27,633 nt of DNA from a virus. This document shows positions 1,562-24,440 of this stretch, piece by piece. The notes beneath the pieces were generated by a model. The model had not been told where the DNA came from. It searched no databases and saw nothing but the letters and a program-made list of their open reading frames with translations. The translations under genes and the position numbers were made by a program. Positions within the stretch are counted from its first letter, which is position 1; the number at the start of each line of letters is the position of its first letter. The stretch is taken from positions 1 through 27,633 of IMG/VR virus record IMGVR_UViG_3300030107_000194. One strand, written 5' to 3'.

Positions 1562-2651
1562 AATATTAACTGGAAACAATATGGAAAAGTTAAAAGAAAT
1601 AGAATCTGAAAGTATTGATTGTGTTGTTAGTTCTCCTCCTTACTTTGGTTTAAGAGATTATGGAACTGGAACGTGGGAAGGTGGAGATTCTAGTTGTCCT
1701 CATAAAAGATTAACTAAAATTTCTAAAGACACAGCCACTGGTCATGCAGGAATGTATGAACAAGGTCATGTTGTTGGTGATGCTATTTATAAACAAATAT
1801 GTCCAGAATGTGGTGCTAAAAGAGTTGATGATCAATTTGGTTTAGAGGAAACATTAGAAGAGTACATAGAGAAAACAGTATTGTTATTTGAAGAGTTGCG
1901 TAGAGTATTAAAGCCACAAGGCACTGTGTGGTGGAATCTTGGTGATTCTTATGCAAGTAAATCTAGTGCTTTTGGTGGAAGGGGAAAAAATTCTATATTA
2001 AACAATACGTCTTTTGAAGACAAACAAAGAAGAAATACAGTTGTTCCAGAAGGATTAAAAGCAAAAGATTTAATGATGATACCAGCTAGAGTTGCAATTG
2101 CTTTATCAGAAAATGGTTGGTATTTAAGAAGCGAAATAATATGGCATAAACCAAATCCTATGCCAGAGAGTGTAAAAGATAGACCTACATCAGCACATGA
2201 AAAGATATACTTGTTTTCTAAAAACAAAAAGTATTATTATGATTCAGAAGCTATACGAGAAGAGGCTAAAACAAAACCAACTGTAAGAAACAAATCAGCA
2301 GAAGGTTATCAAGCAGATTATCCAAATGGAAAAAGATTTAGTGAAGGTGAAAGAACTTATGGAAATGGTTATGCTAATAAACGTAATGTTTGGACAGTAA
2401 CAACTAAACCTTTTAAAGGTGCACACTTTGCTGTGTTTCCAACAGACTTAATAGAACCTTGTATTAAAGCTGGATGTCCTAAAGGTGGTATAGTTTTAGA
2501 TCCTTTTGGTGGTAGTGGCACAACAGGTTTTGTTGCTAATAATTTAGGTAGGGATGCTATCTTAATAGAACTTAATGAGGAGTATGTAGAGATAGCAAAG
2601 AAAAGAATAGGTGGTGATAACCCTTTATTTTCGGAGGTAGAAGATGGTTAA
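1551..2651 (+). CDS. Beta-class DNA methyltransferase (N4-C or N6-A) with zinc-knuckle insert
   Basis: 366 aa. Catalytic motif IV is S-P-P-Y at residues 28-31, and the AdoMet-binding motif I is D-P-F-G-G-S-G-T-T at 317-325, followed by ELNEEYVEIAKKR. The order IV then I is the beta arrangement; SPPY is common in N4-cytosine enzymes but also occurs in N6-adenine ones, so the modified base is open. Between them is a probable zinc site C49-P-H51 plus C84-P-E-C87-G, an insert seen in several phage methyltransferases. The W-W-N-L-G-D-S-Y segment (about 124-131) and I-I-W-H-K-P-N-P-M-P are further family marks. As the only modification gene here, it may protect phage DNA from host nucleases or from the neighbouring HNH enzyme. 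Confidence 0.92.
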   Translation: MGTKILTGNNMEKLKEIESESIDCVVSSPPYFGLRDYGTGTWEGGDSSCPHKRLTKISKDTATGHAGMYEQGHVVGDAIYKQICPECGAKRVDDQFGLEETLEEYIEKTVLLFEELRRVLKPQGTVWWNLGDSYASKSSAFGGRGKNSILNNTSFEDKQRRNTVVPEGLKAKDLMMIPARVAIALSENGWYLRSEIIWHKPNPMPESVKDRPTSAHEKIYLFSKNKKYYYDSEAIREEAKTKPTVRNKSAEGYQADYPNGKRFSEGERTYGNGYANKRNVWTVTTKPFKGAHFAVFPTDLIEPCIKAGCPKGGIVLDPFGGSGTTGFVANNLGRDAILIELNEEYVEIAKKRIGGDNPLFSEVEDG

Positions 2652-3018: not shown

Positions 3019-3335
3019 ACCAATTAGATATGGAATTTATAAGTCCTATTGAGTCAGATTTTAGAAAGTTTCACAAAGATAATCCAGAGATATATAAGTT
3101 GTTTAAGGAGTTTACTTTTACAGCTATTGGTCGTGGTCATAAAAAATTATCTTCTGAAATGATTATTAATCGTATTCGTTGGGAAACTAATATAATGACA
3201 ACTGATAAAGATTATAAGATTAATAATAATTATAAACCTTTTTATTCTCGTATGTTTATGAGTGAGCATCCAGAGTATGAAAATTTTTTTCACAAACGCA
3301 CATCAAAGGCAGATATGGAGACTTACAATGATTGA
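3015..3335 (+). CDS. Conserved phage protein of unknown function (F-x-K-F-H-K-D-N-P family)
   Basis: 106 aa. It contains a pattern I recognise from many phage and plasmid hypothetical proteins: an N-terminal D-F-R-K-F-H-K-D-N-P-E-I-Y helix, a central M-I-I-N-R-I-R-W-E-T, then D-Y-K-I-N-N-N-Y-K-P-F-Y-S-R-M-F-M and a terminal H-P-E-Y-E-N-F-F-H-K-R. The conserved aromatic/basic residues hint at nucleic-acid contact, but no function is established to my knowledge. It is coupled to the gene before (ATGA) and overlaps the oxygenase start by 8 bases, where its coding sequence supplies the GGAG ribosome-binding site for that gene. Confidence 0.7.
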   Translation: MNQLDMEFISPIESDFRKFHKDNPEIYKLFKEFTFTAIGRGHKKLSSEMIINRIRWETNIMTTDKDYKINNNYKPFYSRMFMSEHPEYENFFHKRTSKADMETYND

Positions 3336-3984
3336 AATACAAACAAAGGAACACGCACCTTTTAGTCCATTACTTATGGAATTTAAAATGCCACAAGAAC
3401 ACATTGATACATTAAATAAATATGGAGATAAAATTTCTGCTGATAAAAAGAAGTCTGAGAAGTTAGATTTTTCTGATAGATTGGTAGGTAATGTAAAACA
3501 AGAACACACTATTGAAGATCACATTTGGCGAGAGGGTAAACCTTCTATGTTTCAATGGGTAGGTGGTTGTGCAAGTTTATATGTACAGTCTCTTTTAAAA
3601 AGAAATAAAAACAGTTTAACATTTAATGAACAAGAACAAAGTGTAATGGACAATGGAATTAAAACTTTAAATGTTTTAAAAAGTTGGTTGGTTAATTCTG
3701 TAGCTGGGGATTTTAATCCTGTGCATCAACATGAGGGAAGGTTATCTTGTGCAGGATGGTTAATGATGCCAGAGTCTATACAAAAAGATGAAGAGAGAGA
3801 GCATGCTGGATGGATTGAATTTATGTATGGGGAAAGTTTATCTATGTTAAATAATAAACATGCAATTAAACCAGAGGTAGGACAAATATTTATGTTTCCT
3901 TCTTGGTTACAGCATTCAGTTTATCCTTTTAGAGGTGATGGCATTAGAAGAAGTATTTCATTTAATTTAGATTTTACGGTGTAA
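3328..3984 (+). CDS. 2OG-Fe(II) oxygenase (TIGR02466 / 2OG-FeII_Oxy_5 type)
   Basis: 218 aa from ATG 3328; I choose this over an in-frame ATG at 3262 because GGAG lies 7 bases before it and the longer version would overlap the previous gene by 74 bases. The double-stranded beta-helix signature is in the C-terminal half: N-P-V-H133-Q-H135 for the first iron ligands, then P-E-V-G-Q-I-F-M-F-P-S-W-L-Q-H196-S-V, and R-S-I-S-F-N, where an arginine near 207-208 would bind 2-oxoglutarate. Enzymes of this type hydroxylate a protein or small-molecule substrate using O2 and 2-oxoglutarate. They are frequent in marine phages, where the substrate is unknown. Confidence 0.88.
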   Translation: MIEIQTKEHAPFSPLLMEFKMPQEHIDTLNKYGDKISADKKKSEKLDFSDRLVGNVKQEHTIEDHIWREGKPSMFQWVGGCASLYVQSLLKRNKNSLTFNEQEQSVMDNGIKTLNVLKSWLVNSVAGDFNPVHQHEGRLSCAGWLMMPESIQKDEEREHAGWIEFMYGESLSMLNNKHAIKPEVGQIFMFPSWLQHSVYPFRGDGIRRSISFNLDFTV

Positions 3985-9612: not shown

Positions 9613-12600
9613 CTATCCTAATATTCTGTCTGCTCTTTTTATAAAACGTTGAATAATTAAAGACTCTCTATCTAAAAGTTTTTTAATTTTATCTTTTTTC
9701 TGATCTTCTGTTAATCTTTTACTGTCTTCAATAAATTTAATTTGTTGTCTTATTTTTCTTCTTTGTGATTCAACTGATTTAATAGCTGGTCGAAGACGTA
9801 ATAAACTACCTCTTTCTTTTTTTAAATTTGCAAGAGCCTCTTTATTACCTTCTTCTCTATGATATTCCATAAGATTTTCAGCAATCTTAATTTCATCTCT
9901 AATATCAAAGTATGCTTGTTTATCAACAAATGTTGGCTGAGATTTGTATACTCTACGAGTAAAAGGCACTTGGTTAGGGCCTATTTCATCCCATTGACCT
10001 GTAAGAATATTTTTTCCTAACTCAGTAGTTCTTCCAGTAAAACTTCCTAGTCCACCAAATAAATGACCAAACCAAAAGTCCATAGTTTCTGGAGAGAAAT
10101 CTATAAATCCTTTTTCCATTTTACTACCACCAGTTAAACTGTTAAGTGTGTTAGCTGTTACTTGAGAAATACTTGAGGCATTCCAAAATCTTTGACTATC
10201 TGGTGGGCCTGCATTACCATCAAAAGGATTATCTGGTGGATAAATAGAACGACCAGCATAATCTTCATTTTGCATTAATTGTACAGCAGGTTTTAAAACT
10301 GTAGGTGAAACAAATTCAACTACACTAGAAGAACCTCCAATAGGATTGAAAGCATTAAACATAGAACCAACAGTTCTTGAAGCATTATCTCCTACAGAAA
10401 TTTGTTGTTTACTAGATCCACCCATATCTTCTGGCATTGATGATGCCATAGTTTGACCTAATACAGCCATAACATTGTATCCATATGGCATAGGAATAGC
10501 TATATACTTTTCAGTGCCGGGTAAAAACAAAATAAGATTGTGAGATTTAACCCATCCACTTAACTTATCGTATCTGTTTCTTCCATCTTCATCTTCACCA
10601 GCCGCCATTCTATTCAACATATCTAATGCAAATGAACCAGCAGTAATAGTATAAAGCATTTTTCTTATCTTAGGACTTCTAAATGAAGCCTGTAATACAC
10701 GAACACTACCTTGAATAGATGCATTATAGAATAGGTACATAGAGTTAATTAATCCACCCCATTCACCTTTTCTGTTAAAGTTAACAGTTAAGTTTTTAGC
10801 AAGACTTGCAGCTTGAGTTTGTGTTAATCCAGCATCTAATGCTGATTGAAAAGCTGATACACGAACAGCGTTCTCAACTGCTGCGTTAACATCTGATACA
10901 TACTTACCTACACTTTTAACAAAGTTAGATCCTTTTTTAAGTGATGCACTTGATTTTTTTTCTGTATTAAGACCACCAAGTTGTGCTTGTATTTCATCTA
11001 ATTGATTTTCTAATGTTTTAATAGATGTAAAGAAACCTACTTTACCACCAGCATTTTTATAATTTCTGTATATTGTTTCCCATTCACCTTGTGAATCTGC
11101 TTTTCTTTCAACGTTATACGCACCTTTTAATGCTTTCTTCCAGTTTTTAAACATACTATTTCTTAATTGAACAGTTTGTTCATCAGAAATATTAATTGCG
11201 GCAGTTTGTAAATCTCTTAATAAGTTTGCAACAACGAACTCTGGGTTATACCCTGTGTTAATCATTGCAAGATATCGTGTTACTCTACCTAATGCATTAG
11301 TAAACATGTTGCCAGATTGAGCACCTATGTTATTAAAGAAACGAGCAAGGTACTCATTCTCTAAAAGCATAACTTTTTTTTTGCCATCTATAATAAACTC
11401 AAATGGTTCACCTAAATTTTTAGCTTTCCATTTACCTTTAAGTCTACCTTTTTCTTTTCTAAATTCTTCTTTTAATTTTGTAAACTCTTCTATAGTTTTT
11501 GCTTGCTCTGGTTTAGTTGGATCTTCCATAATAGTCCAAAGACCATCAGTATTAGGATCAACTTCAGATTCATAATATTTAGCAAAGTCATATAATGATT
11601 TACCAACTCTATTTCTCTCTGCTCTTACAATATCATTGTGTAGTTGAATCATTGCTTGAGCAAAAGTATTTCTTGCTTCTCTTATATTTTCTGGAAGTAT
11701 TCCTCTGCCTCTACCTAGTTTAACTTCTCTACCTTCTTTTTTAACTTGAAAACCCGGTGGTTTAGTTACTTTTAATTTTTTTTCTGTTCTTTTAATTGGA
11801 ACGCCAAGTTTCCAATTAATTTCTTCAGCGTCTATTTCAAAATCAATACCACGCAAAGGAACATAATTTTCAAATTGATTAAGTAATTGATCTCTTATTT
11901 CTTTTGATATTATACCACCATCAAATTTTGTTTCTAAATTAGAACGCATCATTTCACTAACTTGTTTGCTAATGTCTTCTAATATTTTAAAATTATCTTG
12001 TTTTTTAAAATCAGCTAAAATAATGTCAGCTTGTTCATCAGTCATACCAGAACCCATAGCAGCTTCTTCTTCTGTTACTTTTTCAAAACCTTCTTCATTT
12101 TTTTTCTTTTTTTCTACATAAGATGCATTACGTTCTTTAGCATGTTTTGCATACAAATAAAGATCAAGATCACCTATAGGAATATTATTTTTTTCCAAAG
12201 TATCTATAATAGGTTCTACTTTAAGAGTTTGTAACTCTGCTAATCTTTCACCAGTTCTTCCATGAAATAATTCTTCAGCAACATAAGGATCTATTAAACC
12301 ATATTTTTTTTGTAATTCTGGGTCTGTAAGTTTCATACCCAGTTTTCTTTCTACAGCGTCTAGTATTCTACGAGTTCCATATCCTTTATCTTGCATTCCC
12401 ATTCTTAATTCAATAGCAGAGTTTGCTATCCAACCACCTAATTTAGGATATTTTTTTCTTAACTTATCTAACTTGGAAACGTATGTCTTGTCTATTCTAG
12501 CTAAACCAGATTTCACTCTGTCATCCATAATAACATCAGACATACTTACGATGCCTTCATCGTTATTATTACCCATTAAACTTTCAGTGCTATATAATGC

Positions 12601-15600
12601 TCCTGTCTCTGGAACAATATCTACTACTGTTTCTTTTCCTTCTGCTTCTAGATTAGCATCAGGCCCTTTAATGTAGTCATCAACTACTTTTGTTTCTTGG
12701 GTTTTTCCTTCTTCTGTTTGTTCTTCTCTTGTAACTTCTGTTCGTTCAATTCTGTTTCCAACTTCAACGCTTGGGCTAGAACTTTCAGACTCGATTTCTC
12801 CATACTTGTTCTCCTTAAAATTATTTATATACTTTTTTGCACCATCTGACAATGTGTATAATTTAGCTGCTTGCTTAACAGTATCAGCATACAATTCATG
12901 TTCATAATACCATAATGCAGCTTGTGCATCATTTGGTGTTAAACCTACCTTTTTAGCTAATGCTACAGCAAATTCATCTGCTCTTTTTTCATGTTTCTTT
13001 AACATTCCACCTTTTAATCCATCTCTGGATGAAGGAGTATTATCTGTTAATTGACCAAATAATCTGTAGAAACTTCTTGAAAACCATACATCTTTAGTAA
13101 CGCCTTCTGCTTCTGCATTATCTTTAATGCCTTTAATATCTAAATAAAATCTTCCTACTTTAGGGCCGAAGATAAATGTACCAAGAACATTGGTATCTAA
13201 TCCTTTGCCTGTGCCTAAAGAAGGTTTAGCGTTAGCTTTGTAGTTGTCATTAATTACGTTACCATATTCTGCTTTACCAGAATCACGTTGTACTTGAGCA
13301 AGTTCTCTTATTGTTTTTTCACTTTTAACAAAATCAACTGTGCCTCTTACACCTAATGTATCTAACATGTATTGTAATAAAGTTAATTGTTTTGATACAC
13401 CCGGCATACTCCAAAACTTATTAGTAGTTGGATTTTTAATTGGTAATACACCATGTTTATTGTAATAATAATAAATTCTAGAAGCTATTTCTACATTCTC
13501 TCTTGGATTTCTATTAACTGATGTAATAGCTGTCATAAGTCCAAACAAATCTTTATCATGTGGATTTGTTTCTAATGTAGGAAGAGCCTCACTTAATAAA
13601 TCAAATGTATCTTTTGCATCTTTTGAATACCAACCAATACCATTAAGAACTTGATTTTTTTGATACTCAATTTCTTTAGCCGCTGAATCTACAGCTTCGT
13701 TAAAAGCCTTATCATCCATAGGATCAGTAGGTTGAGTCATGTCATCAAAATACTTACCTAAATCTCTTGTTAATTTAAGTTTTTCTTTAGGTGGATTTTT
13801 TCTAACTGAAACTGTATCTACAGAAAACTTAGCTCGTAATATAGGTCGTTTACCTTCTATTGCTCTTCTTGCATCTTCTTGTTCTTTTTGTTCTGTAATT
13901 TCTTCTTGAGTAGCACCTTCTATTTGTTTATCTTTTAAAACTTTATCTGCTTTTGCTTTTGATCTTTCTGCAACTTCATCTTTTTCTATGTCTGCTTTTT
14001 TTACTTGTTGTTCCTCTTTTGTTCTTGGGAAAGAACCTTCACTAATAGCCCTGTAAAGAGATTTACGATTAACTCGTCTACCACTAAATTCTTTATGTAT
14101 GTCTGCATCTTGACCAGTTAATACTTCTCCACTACCAATAGTAATAGAGTCACCTGTGTTTGGATCTGTAATATCAAATTTATGCCCATGTCTTACAGCA
14201 ACAGCCGCATTAACCATAGGGTCTAACATTTCTCTTACAGTATCTTCATTAACTTGTTCTGGTTTTTCAGATATAATTTTATTTCTAAAGTTAACAATTT
14301 CATTGTATGCAGGTTGCATATCAGCAGAACGTTTAACTCTTTCTGTTTCTGTTTCTGGAACTTTACCTTTTTTAGTTTCAACAATTATGTCAGCAGCATT
14401 ATTAAGAATACTCATTGCCTCTTGAGAAGGTCTAAATCCAAGTGGTCTAAATATAGGATTGTTAGAATTTATAGTTCCTCTAACATTACTTTTTGGATAA
14501 ACAGTTGTAGGAGCAACAGAATATTGTGCTTCTGGTGGAGTAATAACTCTTTCACCTACATCTGGTGCATCAAGTAATTTTCTATCTTTAGCTTTTTCAA
14601 AATCAACATCAGTTCTTGTTGGTACATCTTTAGCAACCTCAAGTTCTTCTGCTCGTTGTTGACCAAAAGCCCTTGCTTCTTCTTCTGTTCTAAAATCAAA
14701 TCCTCTTCTGCCAACTTTACCTTCACCAGCTAATTTAAATACAGATTCAAAAGTGTTGTATCCTTTACCTTGTACAAATCTTTTTGTTTTAGTAAGTATT
14801 TCACCAATCTTATTAAAAGCACGTTGAATAATATTACCTACTGGAGGTCTCTTATTAAATGCTCTTTGTGTATTCCACGCTTGAAATACATAGGCTTGCA
14901 TTTCTACAGCTTCTAAATCTCTATCTCCATACTTTTTAGTAAGATAATCTATTGCTTTTGTTCCAAGAGTATCTTGAACCCATTGTGGCATATCTTTTAT
15001 TTTGCCACCAGCAAAAGCCTCATCTAGTGCTTTTTGTTCTTTTTCAGTAAAGACACCTTTCTTTTTTAAATTACCCATTGTGCGTTGTAATGCATGAAAA
15101 GATTCATGAGAAAGTAACTCAAATATTTTTGGTGTTGGATTGCCTTTAGCATCCAGCATACCTTCTAATTCTTGCAAAGAAAGATAAATAGTATCACCAG
15201 CTTGGTCATACCAACCTTGTATATTACCAACTGTTTCTTCACTTGTTTTAAAACCTAAAGAACCTTCTGGTGCTACAATTCTATCTGTAGCAAATAAAAC
15301 ATTTGTTGTAGGTGATATTTTATTTATAATATCATTAACAAATATTGCCATTGATCCTAATTCTGGACTTCTCTCAACAAGTTCTTTACTATTAATAACA
15401 GGCTCACCAGCGTATATATCTACTTCAACATTATTTTGTTTTTGTAAATATCGTAAACGAGCAGAAGCCACATTTTCTTCTTCATGTATACTATCTACTT
15501 TTTCTTGTACAACTCTGTCAGTTCCTTTTTCTTTAAGAACTTTAATAACTTCAAATTTTTCAGTAGGATCATCTCGAACATACTGTTTACCATCAATAAC

Positions 15601-17733
15601 TTCTGTTTCTTTTTCTAATACAGGTTTTAATTCAAAACCAACATCAAAAGCATCTTTTTCTTCTACTATGTTTTCTCTTACTTGTGATTCTATATCAGCT
15701 TTTATTTCTGTTCCACCAATAACACCAAGTTCATTTAACTCTCTGTTAGTAGTATAAATTTGGTCTTTATTAGTTTTTCTTCTATCTTTTAAAAGTTTAC
15801 GTTGTTTAGGTGTAAGATTAGCAATAAATCTTGCATCTTTTGGAACTACGCCAGCTTCTTTTAATTCTTTTAAATCAGTAAAGTTAAACTTTTCTGGATC
15901 TTTTCTAAAATTTTTTCTATTTCTATATTCAAATAATAGTCTTCTTTGTTTAGGTGTTAAATCAGTAAGATTAATTGCACCAGCAGTAAATGTTTCTTTA
16001 CCTGTTTTTTTATCTTTAACAACTTTAGCTGCTTTTAGTTCAGCTTCTGTTAAATCTGCTAGTTCTTCTGTGCCTCTTTGACCTTCCCATTTATCAACCC
16101 ATTGTTGTTTATCTGAATCCCATGCAAAACCTTCTGCTGGTTTTTCTGGTATAAGAACGTCTTCTTTAGTTAATTCTGGACTTCCTTTACCATCAATATA
16201 TGATTGTGCTTGTTCTTTAGTTTTAAAAGCAAGTGAGTCTTCTCCACCTCTTTTATTATCTCTAACAACAAAACCTTTACCATCTATAAATTGTTCTGTT
16301 TTAACTTCGTCTACTTCAAAACGTGGTTGACCTATTTGAGGGCCTTTAGGTTTAAGTTTAACTTTTCTTGTTACCTGTTCAAATGTAGGTGCAGGTAATC
16401 CTCTTTTCTTAAAGTATTCTTTTTGAAAAGTTTTATAATATTCTTTTGCTTGTGTTTCACCTTGATTATCTACAATAGTTTGTATTTTTTCATTAAGAAA
16501 TTTATCTACTGTTTCTCCACTTATAAAATCAAATGATTTTTCACTATCTACTTTAGCTTCGTCTTGTACTGTTTTAATTTCTTCTTTAGAAATAGTTTCT
16601 TCTGTTCTTTCTGGAACAGTAGGTGTAGGAATATCTGTTTCTACCTCTTCAATAATTTCTTCACCTAAATTTACAGGAAGTTCAGATTGTTCTGTTCTTG
16701 ATGTTCTTTCAATATCTTCTAAAGTTTTTTTATTTTGAATATTAAGAGGGCCTGTAACACCACCAATAACACCACCTAAAACACCACCAACAAATCCAGC
16801 TTCTGCATATTCTTTCATTGCATCTTCTGAAGTTGCGTAATCTAATCCACCAGCTTGTGCTCTTTCTAAAAATTGTTGAAATACTTCTGTACCAGCTTCT
16901 GTAGGTACACCAATAACTCCACCTTTTAATATTTTTTTAGTAATACCTGCTTGAGGTGTAGTCATTTTTAATGCTCTAGGAAGTAAAGCATATATTACTG
17001 TATCTGCTGCTGCTTGTGCTGGAGCAGTCATTAATGCTTGAAATTCATTAATGTCTACTTTTTCACCTGCTCTTACAGATTGATCTTGTCGTAAAATGTT
17101 TCTACCAAAAAATGATGGAGCAAGTGCAATAGTACCACCAATAATCATACCAGCAGTTCCACCAATAACTGTACCAATTGGGCCTAAAGTAGTTCCTACA
17201 GCGGCTCCAATTTTTCCACCAGCATAAGTACCAGCAATACCTTGTGCCATTTCTGGTGCAGATAATCCAAAGTTTTGTAATAAGTGACCAGTTAAACCAC
17301 CAATACCTTCTGCTTCGTATGCTTGTTTAGAACTTTGATAACCCGGCACTATTTGTGCTTGGGCTAGTTCTGCCTCTCTTGCTTTTTGTAAATAATATTC
17401 TTGATCTTCTTCATCACCTATTAAACCTTGAGTACCAGCAAGTATACCATATCCAGTAGATTTTAATCCAGCTATACCTTTTTTTAAACCACCAACTAAG
17501 TCTTCACCCATTGTTGTAGTTTGGTCTTCTGGATAATTAACTAAATCTACACGTTTACCAAATCGTTCTGTTTCTAAAGACTCTGGATCTATAGTAAAGT
17601 AATCTCTAAATTCATCGTAATTTGGAAATTCTTCTTTATAGAATTTATCATATAAATTTCTTGCTAAAGTGTAATCACTATACTGTGCAAGTTCTGGATA
17701 TTTTTGTTTATATAACTCAATAGGAGCAACCAT
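9613..17733 (-). CDS. 2706-aa polyvalent internal virion/ejection protein with zincin protease and LPD38-like domains
   Basis: The largest gene in the window, ATG 17733 behind AAGGAT. Visible layout: an N-terminal helical domain (1-100), glycine/alanine-rich hydrophobic stretches (about 145-215 and 311-331) resembling membrane-inserting parts of ejection proteins, E/K/T-rich linkers, and a tandem LTPKQR repeat (592-600 and 640-648). A zincin metallopeptidase follows with HESFH at 876-880 and likely third ligand E941 or E944. After a long mixed region (1300-1690) and a charged domain comes an LPD38-like region (about 2145-2450), then a basic coiled coil to the end. It is the last and largest of a 354-646-2706 series like T7 gp14-15-16. 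It would be packaged in the head and injected with DNA, the peptidase acting on envelope or host proteins. No transglycosylase motif is seen. Domain names rest on resemblance, not on a search. Confidence 0.85.
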   Translation of the reverse strand: MVAPIELYKQKYPELAQYSDYTLARNLYDKFYKEEFPNYDEFRDYFTIDPESLETERFGKRVDLVNYPEDQTTTMGEDLVGGLKKGIAGLKSTGYGILAGTQGLIGDEEDQEYYLQKAREAELAQAQIVPGYQSSKQAYEAEGIGGLTGHLLQNFGLSAPEMAQGIAGTYAGGKIGAAVGTTLGPIGTVIGGTAGMIIGGTIALAPSFFGRNILRQDQSVRAGEKVDINEFQALMTAPAQAAADTVIYALLPRALKMTTPQAGITKKILKGGVIGVPTEAGTEVFQQFLERAQAGGLDYATSEDAMKEYAEAGFVGGVLGGVIGGVTGPLNIQNKKTLEDIERTSRTEQSELPVNLGEEIIEEVETDIPTPTVPERTEETISKEEIKTVQDEAKVDSEKSFDFISGETVDKFLNEKIQTIVDNQGETQAKEYYKTFQKEYFKKRGLPAPTFEQVTRKVKLKPKGPQIGQPRFEVDEVKTEQFIDGKGFVVRDNKRGGEDSLAFKTKEQAQSYIDGKGSPELTKEDVLIPEKPAEGFAWDSDKQQWVDKWEGQRGTEELADLTEAELKAAKVVKDKKTGKETFTAGAINLTDLTPKQRRLLFEYRNRKNFRKDPEKFNFTDLKELKEAGVVPKDARFIANLTPKQRKLLKDRRKTNKDQIYTTNRELNELGVIGGTEIKADIESQVRENIVEEKDAFDVGFELKPVLEKETEVIDGKQYVRDDPTEKFEVIKVLKEKGTDRVVQEKVDSIHEEENVASARLRYLQKQNNVEVDIYAGEPVINSKELVERSPELGSMAIFVNDIINKISPTTNVLFATDRIVAPEGSLGFKTSEETVGNIQGWYDQAGDTIYLSLQELEGMLDAKGNPTPKIFELLSHESFHALQRTMGNLKKKGVFTEKEQKALDEAFAGGKIKDMPQWVQDTLGTKAIDYLTKKYGDRDLEAVEMQAYVFQAWNTQRAFNKRPPVGNIIQRAFNKIGEILTKTKRFVQGKGYNTFESVFKLAGEGKVGRRGFDFRTEEEARAFGQQRAEELEVAKDVPTRTDVDFEKAKDRKLLDAPDVGERVITPPEAQYSVAPTTVYPKSNVRGTINSNNPIFRPLGFRPSQEAMSILNNAADIIVETKKGKVPETETERVKRSADMQPAYNEIVNFRNKIISEKPEQVNEDTVREMLDPMVNAAVAVRHGHKFDITDPNTGDSITIGSGEVLTGQDADIHKEFSGRRVNRKSLYRAISEGSFPRTKEEQQVKKADIEKDEVAERSKAKADKVLKDKQIEGATQEEITEQKEQEDARRAIEGKRPILRAKFSVDTVSVRKNPPKEKLKLTRDLGKYFDDMTQPTDPMDDKAFNEAVDSAAKEIEYQKNQVLNGIGWYSKDAKDTFDLLSEALPTLETNPHDKDLFGLMTAITSVNRNPRENVEIASRIYYYYNKHGVLPIKNPTTNKFWSMPGVSKQLTLLQYMLDTLGVRGTVDFVKSEKTIRELAQVQRDSGKAEYGNVINDNYKANAKPSLGTGKGLDTNVLGTFIFGPKVGRFYLDIKGIKDNAEAEGVTKDVWFSRSFYRLFGQLTDNTPSSRDGLKGGMLKKHEKRADEFAVALAKKVGLTPNDAQAALWYYEHELYADTVKQAAKLYTLSDGAKKYINNFKENKYGEIESESSSPSVEVGNRIERTEVTREEQTEEGKTQETKVVDDYIKGPDANLEAEGKETVVDIVPETGALYSTESLMGNNNDEGIVSMSDVIMDDRVKSGLARIDKTYVSKLDKLRKKYPKLGGWIANSAIELRMGMQDKGYGTRRILDAVERKLGMKLTDPELQKKYGLIDPYVAEELFHGRTGERLAELQTLKVEPIIDTLEKNNIPIGDLDLYLYAKHAKERNASYVEKKKKNEEGFEKVTEEEAAMGSGMTDEQADIILADFKKQDNFKILEDISKQVSEMMRSNLETKFDGGIISKEIRDQLLNQFENYVPLRGIDFEIDAEEINWKLGVPIKRTEKKLKVTKPPGFQVKKEGREVKLGRGRGILPENIREARNTFAQAMIQLHNDIVRAERNRVGKSLYDFAKYYESEVDPNTDGLWTIMEDPTKPEQAKTIEEFTKLKEEFRKEKGRLKGKWKAKNLGEPFEFIIDGKKKVMLLENEYLARFFNNIGAQSGNMFTNALGRVTRYLAMINTGYNPEFVVANLLRDLQTAAINISDEQTVQLRNSMFKNWKKALKGAYNVERKADSQGEWETIYRNYKNAGGKVGFFTSIKTLENQLDEIQAQLGGLNTEKKSSASLKKGSNFVKSVGKYVSDVNAAVENAVRVSAFQSALDAGLTQTQAASLAKNLTVNFNRKGEWGGLINSMYLFYNASIQGSVRVLQASFRSPKIRKMLYTITAGSFALDMLNRMAAGEDEDGRNRYDKLSGWVKSHNLILFLPGTEKYIAIPMPYGYNVMAVLGQTMASSMPEDMGGSSKQQISVGDNASRTVGSMFNAFNPIGGSSSVVEFVSPTVLKPAVQLMQNEDYAGRSIYPPDNPFDGNAGPPDSQRFWNASSISQVTANTLNSLTGGSKMEKGFIDFSPETMDFWFGHLFGGLGSFTGRTTELGKNILTGQWDEIGPNQVPFTRRVYKSQPTFVDKQAYFDIRDEIKIAENLMEYHREEGNKEALANLKKERGSLLRLRPAIKSVESQRRKIRQQIKFIEDSKRLTEDQKKDKIKKLLDRESLIIQRFIKRADRILG
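15700..15969 (-). repeat. Tandem protein repeat in the polyvalent protein
   Basis: Two copies of a unit with 48-residue period: L-T-P-K-Q-R-R-L-L (592-600) and L-T-P-K-Q-R-K-L-L (640-648). Each is followed by a basic R/K/N stretch and then a helix of the type L-K-E-L-K-E-A-G-V-V or N-R-E-L-N-E-L-G-V-I. The K/R content suggests a DNA- or peptidoglycan-contacting helical repeat. Confidence 0.7.
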
Positions 17734-17743
17734 TTATTTATCC

Positions 17744-19684
17744 TTATTGTATTTTTTCTATATTATCTAAATCTATATCTTTACTTTCATCGGTAAGAAT
17801 ATCACTCATATCTTTTACTGCTTCTAATTTTTCAAAGAAAGCCTCTGGGTTTTCTTCGTATTCTTCAAACCAATATGGATTAGATTTCATGTAAGCCTGT
17901 AAAAGTTTAGTTGAATTTTTATCAGTAGCTAAACCAAGTTCTTGTATATGATATCCATCTTTATCTCTGTAAATTTGAACTTTCATATCTTTGCCACCAA
18001 TTTCAAGGTCAACAACAGATCCTGTTTCAAATCCTGCTGCTTCTGCTTGTGCATTGTTTTTAACAATTTGAGAAGTAATTAATTTACTATTTAAAAGATT
18101 TCCTGTTTCAGTTTTATACCAATCTAATTCAAGTTTTCTTTCATCTAAACTCATTCCTTGTAATTTTGCTTCATGATCAGCTTTAAATTTAAGTAAATCT
18201 TGTGACAATCTATTTGCTTCCATATCCATAGTTGCAGCTAAATTTTCATATTTAAATTTCAAATCATCTGCACTTATATCTCCTTGCTGTGCCATTTTTG
18301 CATATTCTAATGAGAATTGTTGATATGATTTCATAGCATCAGACGCTATATCATACTCTAATCGTTGTTGATTTTGGGTTAATTGATCTTTACTTAATTT
18401 AATTCTTTCTTCATCAAAGATCAGACCAGCTTTCTTTAAAGCCATTTCTTGTTCGTACTTTTCATCTTCACGTTTTTCTTTTTGTATTCTAGCGTATTCT
18501 TCTAAACCTTTAATACCACCTTCACCTAAAGCACCTAACATATCTGGATTATTAGAAGCAGCCATTTGTAGACCAGCCATCATTAGTGGCATAGCCCAAG
18601 CTGGTGCTTCCTTACCTTTATCTTTTTTATCTGGATTTAATGCTTTTGCAATTTTATCTGAAAGACTTACATCATCTTCTGTTAATTGACTTGAATCTTT
18701 ATTTGACATACCTTGAAATGTTGACATCCAATCTTCTGGTGTCATATCAAACATATTCTTTGGTTGACCATCAACACTTACAATATTAGTTTCAGTTGTT
18801 TTTTTGTTTTTATTCTTTTTGTTTTCTTGTATTTTATCGTCTATTATATCTAAAGTTTCTGATTGTTTAGTATCTTTTTTAGTTAAGTCTGGTTTTTCAA
18901 TTTGACCAAGTTCTCTTTCTATTTCAGTGTCTTTTCTTTTTTGTTTTATTTTATTAATTTCTTCTTGTGTTAGACCTGTAATACCATCATCTCCAAATCG
19001 AGAAGAACCTTCTCCACCAGTGTATTGTGGCATTTCTTCTTTTTCTACTGGTTTTTCTTTAGACATAAATTTACCTTCTATGTCACCTTCTTGTTCTTCT
19101 AATGCAGTAGGAGCACCTGTTAATTGTTCTATTGATGCTTTTTTATCTGGCACAGCTTTTAAAGACTCACCCTTTTTGCCTGTAACAGCTTTTTCTACAT
19201 CAAATGTTTCTATTTGATCACTGTAATCTGTAAAAGCATCTGCAACATCTGATACAGGAATTTTAAGCATATTAGCTATTCTTTGATAATCATTGTTTCT
19301 ATTTTTTTTTGCTTGACCTATACGATATGAATTTCCACCATAAAGATCATTTATTTGTTGTATAACATCAAGTCTACGTTGATTTCCTTTTGCACGAAAA
19401 TCTCCTGCTCTTACACCTACATTTTGTTCACCAGCAGCACCAGCAATAGATGGACTATAATAAGCTGATACAGTTCCACCCGGTGCATACCTTTGTGCTC
19501 TATTTAAAAAACCACCAGTGACTTTCATACCAGTAGGATTACCACCAGATATACCTCTAACCATTCCACCATATCTATATCCAACAGGATTTAAAGCAAA
19601 AAAGTTATTGAGTATTTCTGTATTAGGTAAAGTTGTTTTATAATTTCCTAAGTCTGCGTATAATCCACCTTTAAATTTTTTCAT
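17744..19684 (-). CDS. 646-aa probable internal virion protein (gp15-like position)
   Basis: ATG 19684 overlaps the stop of the 354-aa gene as TAATG. The N-terminal 70 residues hold two glycine motifs (R-Y-G-G-M-V-R-G and Y-A-P-G-G-T-V) also found in other structural proteins here. Residues about 170-320 are a charged, disordered K/E/D/T region. A short hydrophobic patch (W-A-M-P-L-M-M-A-G-L-Q-M-A) leads to a long coiled coil (about 395-540: R-I-Q-K-E-K-R-E-D-E-K-Y and repeated heptads), and a small C-terminal domain ends acidic. This build is typical of the middle ejection protein of podovirus-like marine phages. Position between the S74-tailed protein and the giant polyvalent protein supports that. 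No enzymatic motif is seen. Confidence 0.72.
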   Translation of the reverse strand: MKKFKGGLYADLGNYKTTLPNTEILNNFFALNPVGYRYGGMVRGISGGNPTGMKVTGGFLNRAQRYAPGGTVSAYYSPSIAGAAGEQNVGVRAGDFRAKGNQRRLDVIQQINDLYGGNSYRIGQAKKNRNNDYQRIANMLKIPVSDVADAFTDYSDQIETFDVEKAVTGKKGESLKAVPDKKASIEQLTGAPTALEEQEGDIEGKFMSKEKPVEKEEMPQYTGGEGSSRFGDDGITGLTQEEINKIKQKRKDTEIERELGQIEKPDLTKKDTKQSETLDIIDDKIQENKKNKNKKTTETNIVSVDGQPKNMFDMTPEDWMSTFQGMSNKDSSQLTEDDVSLSDKIAKALNPDKKDKGKEAPAWAMPLMMAGLQMAASNNPDMLGALGEGGIKGLEEYARIQKEKREDEKYEQEMALKKAGLIFDEERIKLSKDQLTQNQQRLEYDIASDAMKSYQQFSLEYAKMAQQGDISADDLKFKYENLAATMDMEANRLSQDLLKFKADHEAKLQGMSLDERKLELDWYKTETGNLLNSKLITSQIVKNNAQAEAAGFETGSVVDLEIGGKDMKVQIYRDKDGYHIQELGLATDKNSTKLLQAYMKSNPYWFEEYEENPEAFFEKLEAVKDMSDILTDESKDIDLDNIEKIQ

Positions 19685-20748
19685 TAGTTTAACCTCCTAA
19701 AGTCTACATCTAGTTTAGAATAGTCAACCATGAGGTATCCATCGTGTTCAGTAGATGCCCAAAGAACTTCTTGTGCTAGTACACCTTCGTATTTGTCTTT
19801 GCTTCCTTTGTAGTTAAATGAGTAAATGTTAATATTAGAAGGTGACTTACCTACTAATTCTACATTATCTTTTAATCTTACATCACTAAACAAATTACCA
19901 AATCCACCTGTTTGTCCAGCAGCACCTAATCCAGCAATACCAAGTCCTAATAGTCGTTGACCTGTACCTGCTGTAGGTTGTTGTTGGTAAGTTGTCATTG
20001 GAGATGGCATTCCACCAAGAATTCCTGCCGCATATTGTGCTTGTGCGTAAGGGAATTGTTGTTGTCTTTGGAAATCTTCATAAGCAATATCTCTACCAGC
20101 TTGTGCTTGAGTTTGACCTAATTGACCTGCTTGGTATAAACCAGATAAACCAGCACCACCAAGTTGCATTTCTTGTCCTGCAATATTTCCATATGCTTGA
20201 CCAGCTTGACCTTGACGTTGTTTGTCTGCTTGTGCTGCTGCTAATGCTTGTTGATAAGATTTTGCTTGTATATCTGCCGCTGCTTTTGCTTGTACATCTC
20301 TTAAATTACGTTCAGATTCTGCTTGTTGTACACCAAAACGTGCACCACCATAAGCACCAGATTTAACAGCTTGATCTGCCATTCCTTGATCTGCTATTTG
20401 TTGTCTACGTTCTAACTCATCTAGGGTAGTCTGCATAACTGCTTGAGAGTATGGGTTTTGATATTGGGAAATATTCTCAGCAGTAATGGGTTGAGCACCC
20501 ATAGTTGTTAATGCTCTAGACGCTTGTAAGTCTGGTCTATAGGCTTGTGCTTGTTGAACAGCACCTTGTCTTGCCATTTGTTGTTCTGTAGTTAAACCAG
20601 CTAATCTTTCGCCACCATAAGGAACATACTGAGCATTCATATCAGTAATGCCAGCAGTCATCTGCGTAATACGCTTTGCCTCATCCTCTAACCACGCTGG
20701 TAATTCTTGTTTTGTTGTCGTATCTACGACTTTACTTCCGAAACACAT
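19684..20748 (-). CDS. 354-aa Ala/Gln-rich virion protein with C-terminal S74 chaperone domain
   Basis: Starts at ATG 20748 behind GGAGG (9-base spacing), directly after the GNAT stop. Residues about 20-230 are A/Q-rich helices (Q-Q-A-Q-A-Y, A-A-A-D-I-Q-A-K-S-Y-Q-Q-A-L) that look like an extended coiled or tube-forming region, followed by a G-rich segment. The last 68 residues match the intramolecular chaperone (peptidase S74) family: F-S288-D-V-R-L-K293-D-N-V, then I-Y-S-F-N-Y, and Y-E-G-V-L-A-Q-E-V. Self-cleavage would occur before S288 using the Ser/Lys pair. S74 domains usually end trimeric fibres and are longer; here the domain is short and lacks the trailing coiled coil. By position it corresponds to T7 gp14. 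Confidence 0.8.
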   Translation of the reverse strand: MCFGSKVVDTTTKQELPAWLEDEAKRITQMTAGITDMNAQYVPYGGERLAGLTTEQQMARQGAVQQAQAYRPDLQASRALTTMGAQPITAENISQYQNPYSQAVMQTTLDELERRQQIADQGMADQAVKSGAYGGARFGVQQAESERNLRDVQAKAAADIQAKSYQQALAAAQADKQRQGQAGQAYGNIAGQEMQLGGAGLSGLYQAGQLGQTQAQAGRDIAYEDFQRQQQFPYAQAQYAAGILGGMPSPMTTYQQQPTAGTGQRLLGLGIAGLGAAGQTGGFGNLFSDVRLKDNVELVGKSPSNINIYSFNYKGSKDKYEGVLAQEVLWASTEHDGYLMVDYSKLDVDFRRLN

Positions 20749-21174
20749 TTAATTGTACCTCCATATATTTCCCATTTCTTTAAAACCCATCCTCTTATAT
20801 AGTGAGGCTGTATTTTTTCCTGTACTTACAGGTATTTGTATTGTCATGTTGTTTGAATATTTAATTAATTCTTGTAGTAATTTTCTTGCTGTTTTGTAGT
20901 CTCTATGCTCTGGAAGAACATAAAACCACGTTTCTGAAACAAATTGTTCGTCTGAAAACCACCACGAACTCTTCATTGCTCCTATACTGCCTACTAACTT
21001 ATTGTCTTTGTAAGCATTCTTAATAAATCCTTTTTTATAATGATCTTCTATTTCTAATCCAACTTTTCTTATACTAACAGTTGGATAAATATCATTAAAC
21101 TCTTTTTTAAATTTTAAAAGTAGATGTAATAAATCTATAAAATCATCTTTAGCTACGTCTCTTATTTCTAGCAC
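20749..21174 (-). CDS. GNAT-family acetyltransferase-like protein in the ejection cassette
   Basis: 141 aa, GTG start at 21174 behind GAGA, overlapping the previous gene by 26 bases. The GNAT fold is visible: N-terminal R-D-V-A-K-D-D-F-I-D-L-L helix, strand pair N-K-L-V-G-S-I-G-A-M, then W-F-Y-V-L-P-E-H-R-D-Y-K-T-A-R-K-L-L as a degenerate acetyl-CoA motif A (Q/RxxGxA is R-D-Y-K-T-A), and N-T-A-S-L-Y-K-R-M-G-F-K-E-M-G at the end. The length and place, directly upstream of the three large internal proteins, recall T7 gene 13 (138 aa). The missing glycine in motif A raises the possibility of a structural GNAT without activity. Substrate unknown. Confidence 0.82.
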   Translation of the reverse strand: MLEIRDVAKDDFIDLLHLLLKFKKEFNDIYPTVSIRKVGLEIEDHYKKGFIKNAYKDNKLVGSIGAMKSSWWFSDEQFVSETWFYVLPEHRDYKTARKLLQELIKYSNNMTIQIPVSTGKNTASLYKRMGFKEMGNIWRYN

Positions 21175-21625
21175 TATTCTCTGCTTTCTCCATCATTGCA
21201 TAAAGTTTTTGTGCTCCTTGTTTTCTACTTCCTCCACCAAAGCCTTTTACGGCATCTGCTGTCATTACAAATTCACCATCAGATAACATTGCTGGTATTG
21301 AATCAGATGTTCCTGTTCCCGGCCCACTAACACCACCACCAGCAGTAAAGTCTCGTATTGATGCTATGCCACCTTTAGCTTTTTTATCTCTGTAAGAACT
21401 TTCTACCTCATCAACAAATTTCATTAATTCTTCTTGATAACTTGTTCCATTTTGATCTGCTTTTTGTTGTATAAATCTAATTAAGTTTGGATCATCATAA
21501 TAGAACTCACCTTGACCAAATGTTTTACCTTCATCTTCTGGTTTCATTACTGGTCTAGATTCTGCTTCTTTTCTTTGTTGAAAAAAGTTTTTTATATTTC
21601 CTATTATATCTGATATTCCTGCCAT
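21149..21625 (-). CDS. 158-aa protein with tape-measure-like C-terminal signature
   Basis: ATG 21625 is preceded by GGAGATGA. The N-terminal 90 residues are charged helix (N-I-K-N-F-F-Q-Q-R-K-E-A-E-S-R, F-I-Q-Q-K-A-D). From about residue 87 the sequence runs K-G-G-I-A-S, then G-G-G-V-S-G-P-G-T-G-T-S-D-S-I-P-A and L-S-D-G-E-F-V-M-T-A-D-A-V-K-G-F-G. That S-D-S-I-P-A-x-L-S-D-G-E-F-V motif is well known from ends of tail tape-measure and other virion proteins of many phages, though its molecular role is not clear to me. A 158-aa carrier is far too short to be a tape measure, so this is likely an assembly or ejection-related factor. Confidence 0.75.
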   Translation of the reverse strand: MAGISDIIGNIKNFFQQRKEAESRPVMKPEDEGKTFGQGEFYYDDPNLIRFIQQKADQNGTSYQEELMKFVDEVESSYRDKKAKGGIASIRDFTAGGGVSGPGTGTSDSIPAMLSDGEFVMTADAVKGFGGGSRKQGAQKLYAMMEKAENSARNKRRS

Positions 21626-22607: not shown

Positions 22608-24440
22608 TTACCTCATTCCATCTGGTTGAACTTCAAAACGTAGAGTACCTAATCTCCAGTTTTCTCCTGTTGCATCGTTGTTAACTGCATCATATCCATT
22701 ACTTTCTACACGAACAGCAATTTGTCTTCCTCTAGATCGAGGATTAAATCGTTGTGTAGAAGTAGATAAATAAAAAGGCCCTTTAGTAGTTTGTGAATCA
22801 CTAGGATAATATCTTGATTTTAAACTTATATTAACATTACCTACTTGATCTTTAAAGTCCTGTATGCCTCTTTTAATAAACATTATTTCATCACCATCAC
22901 CTATATCAAAATCTCCACTTTCAATATAAGATGTTAAAGTAGAACCATCATCGTCAGTTCCATTTTCGTGTACATAAACAGTTGTATTTGCACTACCATC
23001 GTATTCAGTTGCATAAGGCAATGAATAAGTACCAGAGTCTATCCATGTACTTCTACCTAAACTACCAGTATACCATAAGTTTTCTTGATAATTGTAAATA
23101 ACATATTTGTCATTTTGGTTTGATGCTGTGGTGCAATATAGCCACCAAATTTCACCAAATGCAGAGTTAGATCCTGCAAAAACTTGTTCATATTGTTTAG
23201 GCTCTATATTATCAAAAACAAAATCCTCTACTGTGCATGGTATTTTTCTTACAGTACCATCAAATCTATAAAAAGCATCACTACTCATCCAGTAAACAAT
23301 TCCACCTACATCTACAGCACAACTTGGACTTATTGCTCCACAATTAGATCCTAATTGTTGAAAACCAAAAGTAAATGGTGCACCAATAAATGACATACCA
23401 TGTGCTGATGTATCTGTTAGTATAAGTATTTGACCTCTTGTACGAACAGCAGTAACAATTTCACTACCATCAGTTATACGTTGTGATCCTGCTGTGTTTG
23501 TAGCTGTAGCAGTCCAAGAATTATAATCATCTTGATCTGACCATCTTATAAACATTGGATCTTGCGTTGATGTAGTTCCAATAGTTGTTTCAGTTCCAAA
23601 ACATATTAAATGTCTATCTGGATTTGATACTAAAGAAAATTTAGTTTTTGTAGGAGCATTAGTTATTGCTGCAGCTATGTTAGAAGCAGTTAATACACCT
23701 CCAGATGTATCCCAAACATAAATTCCACCATCAATATCAAGTGCAATTAAATCTTCTCCCCAGTTATCTAAAGCCCAGTTTCTTAAAGCAATTGTTACAC
23801 TAGAAGTTGCTCTTGGTGTATCCCATGTGCTTACATCCCATTTTCCAACACCCCATCCATAACCAGATAAGGCTTTATCTCTTCCTGCTGTAACTTCATA
23901 TTCTACAGAACAATTTCCTGTAGTTGAAACTGTTGAAGATGCATTTGTTCCCACATCTATAGTGTAAGTTGAAGTAGTTGGAACAGATGCTATTTCATAT
24001 TCTCCATCAACAGTTGAAGCAGAAACTCCACCTATACTTGCACTTGTACTTGATATAGTAACATAATCACCTTCTGAAGCACCATGCGAAGAATGAGTTA
24101 CAGTAAATATTGATGAACCACTTGATGTGGTAAAAACACTTGTTATATCAGCAGATGAACGAGTTGGCGTAGCATCAAAAAAATTACCTTCATTATAAAT
24201 GTATAATTTCTTATTAGTTCCAAAAGCATCATATGCAGTTCCATCTAATGAGTTCCAAGCTAATTGTGCTCTTGCTACTCCAATAAAAGTAGTTGTTGAA
24301 ACTTTTTCCCAACCACCTATTTTTTCTGGAAAACCATATCGAAAACGAACTTTGTCTCCATCAATCCATTTACCCTTAGATGTTATCTCAGTGTTTTGTT
24401 TATCAAAACCCGGTTGAAATTGAATTTTGTTAATTGGCAT
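22608..24440 (-). CDS. 610-aa head-tail/tail stabilisation-type protein
   Basis: The N terminus (F-Q-P-G-F-D-K-Q-N-T, then W-I-D-G-D-K-V-R-F-R-Y-G-F-P-E-K-I-G-G-W) is the hallmark of a family widespread in marine podovirus-like phages, usually annotated as tail or DNA-stabilisation protein. The body is beta-rich with repeated blades (L-I-L-T-D-T-S-A-H-G-M, V-Y-W-M-S-S-D-A-F-Y-R-F-D-G), suggesting a propeller-like tail nozzle or hub. Residues about 95-165 are a distinct S/T-rich insert (F-T-V-T-H-S-S-H-G-A-S-E-G-D-Y-V-T-I, G-E-Y-E-I-A-S-V) that looks like a small all-beta domain. It starts two bases after the fibre stop with a weak ribosome-binding site and probably forms part of the tail together with the fibre. 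Confidence 0.8.
   Translation of the reverse strand: MPINKIQFQPGFDKQNTEITSKGKWIDGDKVRFRYGFPEKIGGWEKVSTTTFIGVARAQLAWNSLDGTAYDAFGTNKKLYIYNEGNFFDATPTRSSADITSVFTTSSGSSIFTVTHSSHGASEGDYVTISSTSASIGGVSASTVDGEYEIASVPTTSTYTIDVGTNASSTVSTTGNCSVEYEVTAGRDKALSGYGWGVGKWDVSTWDTPRATSSVTIALRNWALDNWGEDLIALDIDGGIYVWDTSGGVLTASNIAAAITNAPTKTKFSLVSNPDRHLICFGTETTIGTTSTQDPMFIRWSDQDDYNSWTATATNTAGSQRITDGSEIVTAVRTRGQILILTDTSAHGMSFIGAPFTFGFQQLGSNCGAISPSCAVDVGGIVYWMSSDAFYRFDGTVRKIPCTVEDFVFDNIEPKQYEQVFAGSNSAFGEIWWLYCTTASNQNDKYVIYNYQENLWYTGSLGRSTWIDSGTYSLPYATEYDGSANTTVYVHENGTDDDGSTLTSYIESGDFDIGDGDEIMFIKRGIQDFKDQVGNVNISLKSRYYPSDSQTTKGPFYLSTSTQRFNPRSRGRQIAVRVESNGYDAVNNDATGENWRLGTLRFEVQPDGMR

What the first reader, a model, noticed from the sequence alone, without database searches (positions are those of the whole stretch)
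9613..21174. T7-like ejection cassette (GNAT, 354, 646, 2706 aa) ending in a protease-bearing polyvalent giant
The order GNAT protein of 141 aa, then three progressively larger non-enzymatic-looking proteins, parallels T7 genes 13 (138 aa), 14, 15 and 16. In T7 the last protein carries a lytic transglycosylase; here the giant carries a HESFH zincin motif and an LPD38-like region instead, and I see no transglycosylase motif. This suggests an ejectosome that injects a peptidase and other effector domains into the host, with muralytic activity supplied elsewhere. The synteny is read from the sequence; the functional parallel is inference.
Basis: partly seen in the sequence, partly recalled or inferred. 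Interest (0 to 1): 0.8.

Follow-up and report, generated by a model that had tools for sequence, protein, structure and literature searches.

The report
Giant multi-domain phage ejection protein cassette
A marine short-tailed phage ends its row of DNA-ejection genes with a 2,706-residue protein that very probably rides into the host cell and carries a self-cutting protease plus a widespread, unexplained domain; related phages keep the same slot but swap the cargo, so this is a new variant of a known kind of system.

Summary
The four ORFs are real and tightly packed on the minus strand: GNAT 141 aa, 354 aa, 646 aa, 2,706 aa. The giant has HESFH with a conserved downstream glutamate, LPD38 (E 6.6e-35), and no recognised muralytic domain.

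The ejection-cassette reading holds at the level of slot and order. The 354-aa protein matches the "DNA ejection protein" PHROG. Relatives and isolates (Roseobacter phage CRP-901, phage DSL-LC04, pelagiphage HTVC023P) keep the slot, with final proteins of 759 to 3,620 aa. Homology to T7 gp14-gp16 was tested by profile and fold and not found. The layout resembles phage N4 virion RNA polymerase more than T7 gp16, again without sequence homology.

The giant is a polyvalent protein in the sense of Iyer et al. 2017. Its ~900-residue C-terminal module ends giants in at least 435 viral contigs, behind swapped payloads. Its own payload includes a "GWY" domain, a distant relative of DUF7178 found in at least 479 contigs, often in a separate gene at the T7 gene-16 position. 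That domain gives a confident all-helical model with no PDB match. Virion presence, injection and autoproteolysis remain inferred.

The parts
20749..21174 (-). GNAT-family protein, 141 aa, first gene of the cassette (T7 gene-13 position)
   Evidence: Acetyltransf_7 E 3.3e-9, Acetyltransf_1 E 5.8e-9; phrog_1249 acetyltransferase E 1.8e-16; 60% identical in L008 at the same position
19684..20748 (-). 354-aa ejection protein with weak S74 chaperone-like C-terminus
   Evidence: phrog_4287 DNA ejection protein E 1.1e-33; Peptidase_S74 E 8.7e-4, below cut-off; family HMM hits DSL-LC04, HTVC023P and CRP-901 proteins
17744..19684 (-). 646-aa fast-evolving second ejection protein (gp15-like position)
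   Evidence: No family, PDB or phage hit; 40% identical in L005 between neighbours at 97 and 92%; replaced in L007/L008
9613..17733 (-). 2,706-aa giant polyvalent protein, last gene of the cassette (gp16-like position)
   Evidence: Single open frame; LPD38; phrog_14770/616/10691
16714..17733 (-). N-terminal region of the giant (residues 1-340); first 60 residues a conserved leader, then glycine-rich
   Evidence: Shared with the otherwise unrelated giant P0005 of L008: BLAST E 2e-7 unfiltered, 4.8e-4 with low-complexity filter
14698..15414 (-). zincin-like metallopeptidase region (residues 774-1012)
   Evidence: Conserved HESFH plus downstream E in the window, L004 and L028; profile hits zincin regions of L071, L031, L038, L061
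15094..15108 (-). HESFH (residues 876-880)
   Evidence: 0.01 expected by composition
12664..13743 (-). 'GWY' payload domain, distant DUF7178 relative (residues 1331-1690)
   Evidence: Alignment A7 of 47 sequences; model pLDDT 85.3, pTM 0.82; 16/47 members hit PF23802; no PDB match
9616..12396 (-). C-terminal module of the giant (residues 1780-2706), mostly helical
   Evidence: >=435 viral loci; at the C-terminus of 78 ORFs; model pLDDT 80.4, pTM 0.79; no PDB match
9961..10578 (-). LPD38 within the C-terminal module (residues 2386-2591)
   Evidence: PF18857 E 6.6e-35
21149..21625 (-). 158-aa protein just upstream, ending like a tape-measure protein (SIPAMLSDGEFVM)
   Evidence: PHROG tape-measure C-termini; 46-55% identical over 82 aa to the end of the DSL-LC04 tape-measure protein
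22608..24440 (-). 610-aa tail/stabilisation protein that anchors the synteny
   Evidence: phrog_3287 virion structural protein E 6.2e-89; 47% identical to DSL-LC04 stabilisation protein, 42% to HTVC023P gp72

Best explanation
The four genes are the DNA-ejection cassette of a marine podovirus, and the 2,706-aa protein is its terminal ejection protein, enlarged into a polyvalent cargo carrier. Proposed working: the 354-aa and 646-aa proteins and the giant are packed in the capsid. On infection the two smaller ones leave first and build the outer-membrane/periplasmic conduit. The giant is threaded through the tail as a string of domains. Its N-terminal region and ~900-residue helical C-terminal module hold it in or near the envelope. 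The zincin then cuts the chain and frees the payload, including the GWY domain, into the host, where it acts on DNA, RNA or host proteins at the start of infection. Phages exchange the payload while keeping the slot. Shown here: the genes, the slot, the domain boundaries, the conserved zincin residues, the C-terminal module with swapped payloads, and the payload replacement in close relatives. Inferred: presence in the virion, injection, the assembly steps, autoproteolysis, and the activity of the GWY domain.
For: Ejection family for the 354-aa protein, confirmed by its HMM in three isolates: DSL-LC04 7.5e-33, HTVC023P 9e-24, CRP-901 1.4e-18. The slot is conserved: L005, L028, L007, L008; CRP-901 has GNAT-461-467-759 and DSL-LC04 has 294-645-1068 annotated 'DNA transfer protein'. 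Payload swap in one slot: L008 keeps GNAT 60% and 354 63%, but its last protein is 3,620 aa with a Strawberry-notch helicase. C-terminal module in >=435 loci, always at the C-terminus, behind InPase, ART, LPD1, LPD5, RadC, ParB, methyltransferase and helicase domains. GWY domain in a separate gene in T7-order ejection cassettes in 39 of 80 loci, with T7 gp13-PHROG and internal-virion-PHROG neighbours in those scanned. Homologous C-terminus in the Bcep22-group giants annotated transglycosylase/helicase/methylase or DarB-like (PMC10269572). Comparable layout in N4 virion RNA polymerase, which is ejected (PMC12633501).
Against: No sequence or fold similarity to T7 gp14, gp15, gp16 or N4 gp50, gp51. 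The 646-aa protein has no recognisable family. No virion proteomics for this phage or its near relatives was found in what I could search. Hydrophobic segments in the giant do not exceed shuffled expectation, so membrane insertion has no support from sequence.
Confidence: 0.74

Rival explanations
1. Strict T7 reading: the four proteins are true homologues of T7 gp13-gp16, with the transglycosylase of gp16 replaced by a protease that is an effector.
For: Order and sizes; bridging contigs with T7 gp13-PHROG and internal-virion-PHROG members beside GWY proteins.
Against: No profile similarity to T7 gp13, gp14, gp15 or gp16; C-terminal fold unmatched although gp15 and gp16 are in the PDB. The L008 giant in the same slot has no HExxH, so a peptidase effector is not required.
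Confidence: 0.12
2. N4-like reading: the giant is the functional counterpart of N4 virion RNA polymerase (membrane-associated N-terminal domain, enzyme, HExxH domain C1, large helical C2), and the 646-aa protein the counterpart of N4 gp51 (644 aa). This is a sharper form of the best explanation.
For: Same kind of domain layout described for N4 gp50 (PMC12633501); N4 order 150, 644, 3,500 aa; in many giants of the panel HExxH lies roughly 130-600 residues before the C-terminal module.
Against: No RNA polymerase domain; no HMM, BLAST or profile match between the two sets; in this protein the GWY domain sits between zincin and C-module.
Confidence: 0.35
3. The zincin is an effector that cleaves host proteins, rather than a self-processing peptidase.
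For: Iyer et al. list it as one of several possibilities (PMC5512222).
Against: Zincins sit between other domains in polyvalent proteins of all kinds, and phage P1 DdrB is processed before packaging (PMC5512222); position close to the C-terminal module in many giants.
Confidence: 0.2
4. The GWY domain is a divergent HhH-GPD DNA glycosylase.
For: Invariant K and D.W..R...R with the D+5/+9 arginine spacing also seen in E. coli Nth and MutY; a short helix, GPKxG turn, longer helix in the model.
Against: No PF00730 match in the window record at E<=1 or in 12 relatives at E<=10, while all 14 control genomes ring; profile comparison no better than unrelated or shuffled controls; no significant Foldseek hit in the PDB.
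Confidence: 0.1
5. The giant is a purely structural virion or tail protein whose enzyme-like regions are relics.
For: Late structural operon; no activity shown.
Against: HExxH, downstream E and invariant polar residues of the GWY domain are kept across divergent sequences; payloads of relatives match known enzyme families.
Confidence: 0.1

Closest known systems
Polyvalent proteins of phages and conjugative elements (Iyer et al. 2017, PMC5512222)
   Same: Large multi-domain late protein beside virion genes, LPD38, zincin-like MPTase, variable payload domains, predicted to be injected
   Different: Here the protein is placed in a defined ejection slot with swapped cargo in close relatives; the GWY/DUF7178-like domain was not found by name in that text
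N4 virion RNA polymerase gp50 with gp51 and gp52 (Schitoviridae)
   Same: Giant last protein after a ~645-aa ejection protein; N-terminal region, enzyme, HExxH, large helical C-terminal region without known fold
   Different: No RNA polymerase domain and no detectable sequence homology
T7 gp13-gp14-gp15-gp16 ejection proteins
   Same: Gene order; small GNAT at the gp13 position, then proteins of rising size; ejection-protein PHROG for the 354-aa member
   Different: No sequence or fold match; no lytic transglycosylase; the last protein is twice the size of gp16
Bcep22-group (Lessievirus) DarB-like giant with transglycosylase, helicase and methylase
   Same: Homologous C-terminal module (about 25-27% identity); giant following structural genes
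   Different: Carries transglycosylase, helicase and methylase instead of zincin plus GWY
Vibrio phage 252E42.2 giant (3,066 aa) and related phages
   Same: Homologous C-terminal module, 30.7% over 928 residues
   Different: Methyltransferase-type payload, different cassette neighbours
PF23802 DUF7178
   Same: Family of the GWY domain by 16 of 47 aligned members
   Different: The window's own copy does not match the Pfam model directly

Membership tests
Polyvalent proteins | Several disparate domains in one polypeptide | tested here: met
   LPD38, zincin, GWY/DUF7178-like domain
Polyvalent proteins | Gene beside late virion genes (phage type) | tested here: met
   Next to ejection, stabilisation and tail proteins
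Polyvalent proteins | Carried in the virion and injected | not testable with these tools
   Needs virion mass spectrometry and a delivery assay
Zincin-like MPTase of polyvalent proteins | HEXXH helix plus glutamate in a downstream helix | tested here: met
   H876-E-S-F-H880 and E944 conserved in L004 and L028; profile reaches zincin regions of unrelated giants
Zincin-like MPTase of polyvalent proteins | Zincin fold | not tested
   Region not among the two structure jobs
LPD38 | Match above Pfam cut-off | tested here: met
   121.4 bits against cut-off 27
T7-type ejection proteins gp14-gp16 | Gene order after the tail/stabilisation genes | tested here: met
T7-type ejection proteins gp14-gp16 | Sequence homology to gp14, gp15, gp16 | tested here: not met
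   Profile comparison, all probabilities below 3%
T7-type ejection proteins gp14-gp16 | Fold similarity of the last protein to gp16 | tested here: not met
   C-terminal 927 residues only; no PDB match with E<=0.001, although gp16 entries exist
T7-type ejection proteins gp14-gp16 | gp15-like helical tube for the 646-aa protein | not tested
   Only sequence was tested, no fold job
T7-type ejection proteins gp14-gp16 | Peptidoglycan hydrolase in the cassette | tested here: not met
   No such Pfam or NCBIfam family in the four proteins; the feature is not universal among ejection cassettes (PMC8954989)
T7 gp13 (PHROG 308, PF11090) | Family match of the GNAT | tested here: not met
   Window GNAT hits phrog_1249, not 308; T7 gp13 hits PF11090 only; bridging proteins in L150 and L158 hit 308 and, weakly, an acyltransferase PHROG
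N4 virion RNA polymerase | Sequence homology of the C-terminal region | tested here: not met
   No HMM or profile match
DUF7178 (PF23802) | Match above Pfam cut-off | tested here: inconclusive
   Window copy none; 16 of 47 aligned relatives match at E<=0.1, best 8.5e-15
HhH-GPD DNA glycosylases | PF00730 match or fold match | tested here: not met

The most novel reading that the evidence does not exclude
The GWY domain is a distinct, uncharacterised enzyme or effector domain with a fold not represented in the PDB. It is delivered into hosts by the gene-16-position protein of a very large group of marine and freshwater podoviruses, either in its own ejection protein or as cargo inside giant polyvalent proteins.
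Probability: 0.4. Interest if true: 0.75.

Novelty: new variant of a known kind. Interest (0 to 1): 0.52.

Why it matters
It ties two bodies of work together: the T7/N4 ejectosome and the predicted injected polyvalent proteins. The same four-gene slot holds final proteins from 759 to 3,620 aa, with swapped cargo in close relatives, so which parts are delivery machinery and which are cargo can be read from comparison and tested. It also points to a widespread domain of unknown function in the gene-16 position of many uncultured podoviruses, with one isolate (Limnohabitans phage DC33) in which virion presence could be tested at once.

Tried and rejected
HhH-GPD glycosylase for the GWY domain: suggested by motif spacing, then rejected as a membership claim by PF00730 scans, profile comparison with E. 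coli Nth and MutY plus controls, and Foldseek. Direct T7 homology by hhalign: nothing for GNAT/gp13, 354/gp14, 646/gp15, C-module/gp16. N4 homology: nothing. Membrane segments in the giant: one weak segment, not above shuffled sequence. Coupled exchange of the 646-aa protein and the giant's N-terminus: in L005 both differ between highly identical flanks, but they are adjacent, so one recombination tract explains it as well as physical pairing; not claimed. Profile search of the PDB with both modules: only chance hits. Cellular copies of the GWY domain: only six contigs in genome contigs, contexts not pursued. The 646-aa protein was not folded: only two jobs were allowed, and it has too few relatives for a useful alignment.

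Full report
Observation. The window is G000:C1:1-27633 of a 35,898-nt virus record. The four ORFs lie on the minus strand at the stated places and in the stated sizes, with at most 10 nt between them. HESFH occurs once in the giant, where 0.01 HExxH are expected from its composition. Pfam finds GNAT families in the first protein, a weak Peptidase_S74 end in the second, nothing in the third, and LPD38 in the giant. PHROGs place the 354-aa protein in 'DNA ejection protein' (phrog_4287, E 1.1e-33) and match only the C-terminal third of the giant at high significance. No muralytic family was found in the four proteins.

Slot and order. The upstream 610-aa protein is a stabilisation/tail protein, 47% identical to that of phage DSL-LC04 and about 40% to those of pelagiphages HTVC023P and HTVC027P. 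L005 keeps the order from the tail-fibre gene to the giant at 92-100% for most genes, but its 646-aa counterpart is only 40% identical and the first ~60 residues of its giant differ. L028 keeps GNAT 141, then 359, 620 and a 2,280-aa giant. L007 and L008 keep GNAT (60% in L008) and the 354-aa protein (63% in L008), but the last two genes are replaced. The L008 giant has 3,620 residues with a Strawberry-notch type helicase and a C-terminal match to the PLxRFG tail-700 model, below its cut-off. Only its N-terminal ~60-340 residues resemble ours. Isolates with the same slot have lean last proteins: CRP-901 GNAT 144, 461, 467, 759; HTVC023P 278, 286, 868; DSL-LC04 294, 645, 1068 'DNA transfer protein'. 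The 354-aa family HMM recognises the 461-, 278- and 294-aa members. The giant is therefore best read as an enlarged form of the last ejection protein of a conserved slot.

The giant's parts. (i) Residues 1-340, leader and glycine-rich region. (ii) Residues 774-1012, zincin: HESFH plus E944, conserved in L004 and L028, with profile matches to zincin regions of giants L071, L031, L038 and L061. (iii) Residues 1331-1690, here called the GWY domain. (iv) Residues 1780-2706, C-terminal module with LPD38. In the 78 ORFs examined it sits at the C-terminus behind payloads of very different length. In 27 payloads scanned, Pfam finds InPase (8), LPD1 (6), ART-PolyVal (5), LPD5 (4), RadC (3), ddrB-ParB (2), DUF7178 (2), methyltransferase (2), helicase (1), GNAT (1) and others. 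Among annotated phages the same module ends the giants of many Vibrio phages and the transglycosylase/helicase/methylase giant of the Bcep22 group (PMC10269572). Database rows also show it in Stx-converting phages; those regions were not fetched. Its AlphaFold model (pLDDT 80.4, pTM 0.79) is mostly helical and has no PDB match with E<=0.001.

The GWY domain. An alignment of 47 sequences has invariant S106, K226, D249, W251, R258, Q305, A306, W309, Y310 and E312 among others, numbering from window residue 1300. In 39 of 80 loci it lies in a 560-800-aa protein that follows a gp14-sized and a gp15-sized gene; in 33 of these a ~1,000-aa protein comes next, and downstream tail-fibre genes were seen in contigs read in detail. 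In that neighbourhood, PHROG 418 'internal virion protein' is found at the gp14 position, PHROG 308 (the T7 gp13 family) at the gp13 position in L150 and L158, and PHROG 6651 'internal virion protein' in the 1,005-aa protein of L138. Sixteen of 47 members hit DUF7178; the window's copy does not. The library of papers holds none with that name. The model is confident (pLDDT 85.3, pTM 0.82), finds phage polyvalent proteins in the viral structure library and nothing in the PDB (best E 0.41). A resemblance in motif spacing to HhH-GPD glycosylases was tested several ways and not confirmed.

T7 or N4? Profile comparison of the GNAT, 354, 646 and C-terminal families with T7 gp13-gp16 gave probabilities below 3%. 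That is not by itself damning: a review states that gp15 homologues are assigned mostly by size and synteny, and that P22 and T7 ejection proteins share little sequence (PMC8954989). The N4 cassette (150, 644 and 3,500 aa) and the layout of N4 virion RNA polymerase, with an HExxH domain C1 followed by a ~110-kDa helical C2 of no known fold (PMC12633501), resemble the present case more closely in build, again without sequence homology. 'Works like' is therefore proposed for both systems, 'is a member of' for neither.

Mechanism and status of each step. Shown: genes, slot, domain limits, conserved active-site residues, module exchange. From published work: N4 virion RNA polymerase and T4 Alt are packaged and injected; phage P1 DdrB is processed (PMC5512222, PMC12633501). 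Inferred: that this giant is in the virion, threads through the tail, is anchored by its ends and cuts itself, and that the GWY domain acts in the host.

Verdict. An ejection cassette ending in a polyvalent protein is a known kind. The defined slot with swapped cargo and the unexplained GWY/DUF7178-like domain make it a new variant worth a bench test.

Noticed in passing
PQ492659.1 (L024): Limnohabitans phage DC33 is classed in its record as Inoviridae (filamentous phages), yet it encodes a tail/stabilisation-type protein, gp14- and gp15-position proteins and a 3,125-aa polyvalent giant; the taxonomy line looks wrong.
   Followed up: partly
window 17744-19684 with the first ~180 nt of the giant gene (17554-17733), against L005: Sharp block of divergence (646-aa protein 40% identical, first ~60 residues of the giant about half identical) between neighbours at 97% and 92%; suggests exchange or strong diversification of this pair.
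   Followed up: partly
L021 6481-6891 (minus): Relatives L007 and L008 carry a SleB-type cell wall hydrolase (Hydrolase_2, E 6.5e-19) downstream of the giant; none was recognised among the window proteins tested, so the lysin of this phage was not found.
   Followed up: partly
window 21149-21625: 158-aa protein that matches only the C-terminal SDGEFV end of tape-measure proteins, as if a tape measure had shrunk to its end in this phage.
   Followed up: partly
L027 4931-10950: Distant relative with the 354-type ejection protein extended into a single 729-aa protein (its C-terminal half resembles the 646-type protein by eye only), followed by a lean 1,276-aa last protein and a 351-aa protein with a lysozyme-like stretch (phrog_4290, E 0.004).
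   Followed up: partly
window right end; L002 1907-3748: The window stops at a short run of N; across it lies a 613-aa ORF with a long Asp/Glu-rich repeat on the minus strand.
   Followed up: no
window 1551-2651 and 3262-3984: DNA methyltransferase (N6_N4_Mtase, E 2e-55) and 2OG-Fe(II) oxygenase (E 2.6e-18) in the plus-strand half.
   Followed up: no
Genome-contig loci L186-L191: GWY-like domain in a few bacterial assemblies (Polynucleobacter, several MAGs), probably prophages or phage contigs.
   Followed up: no
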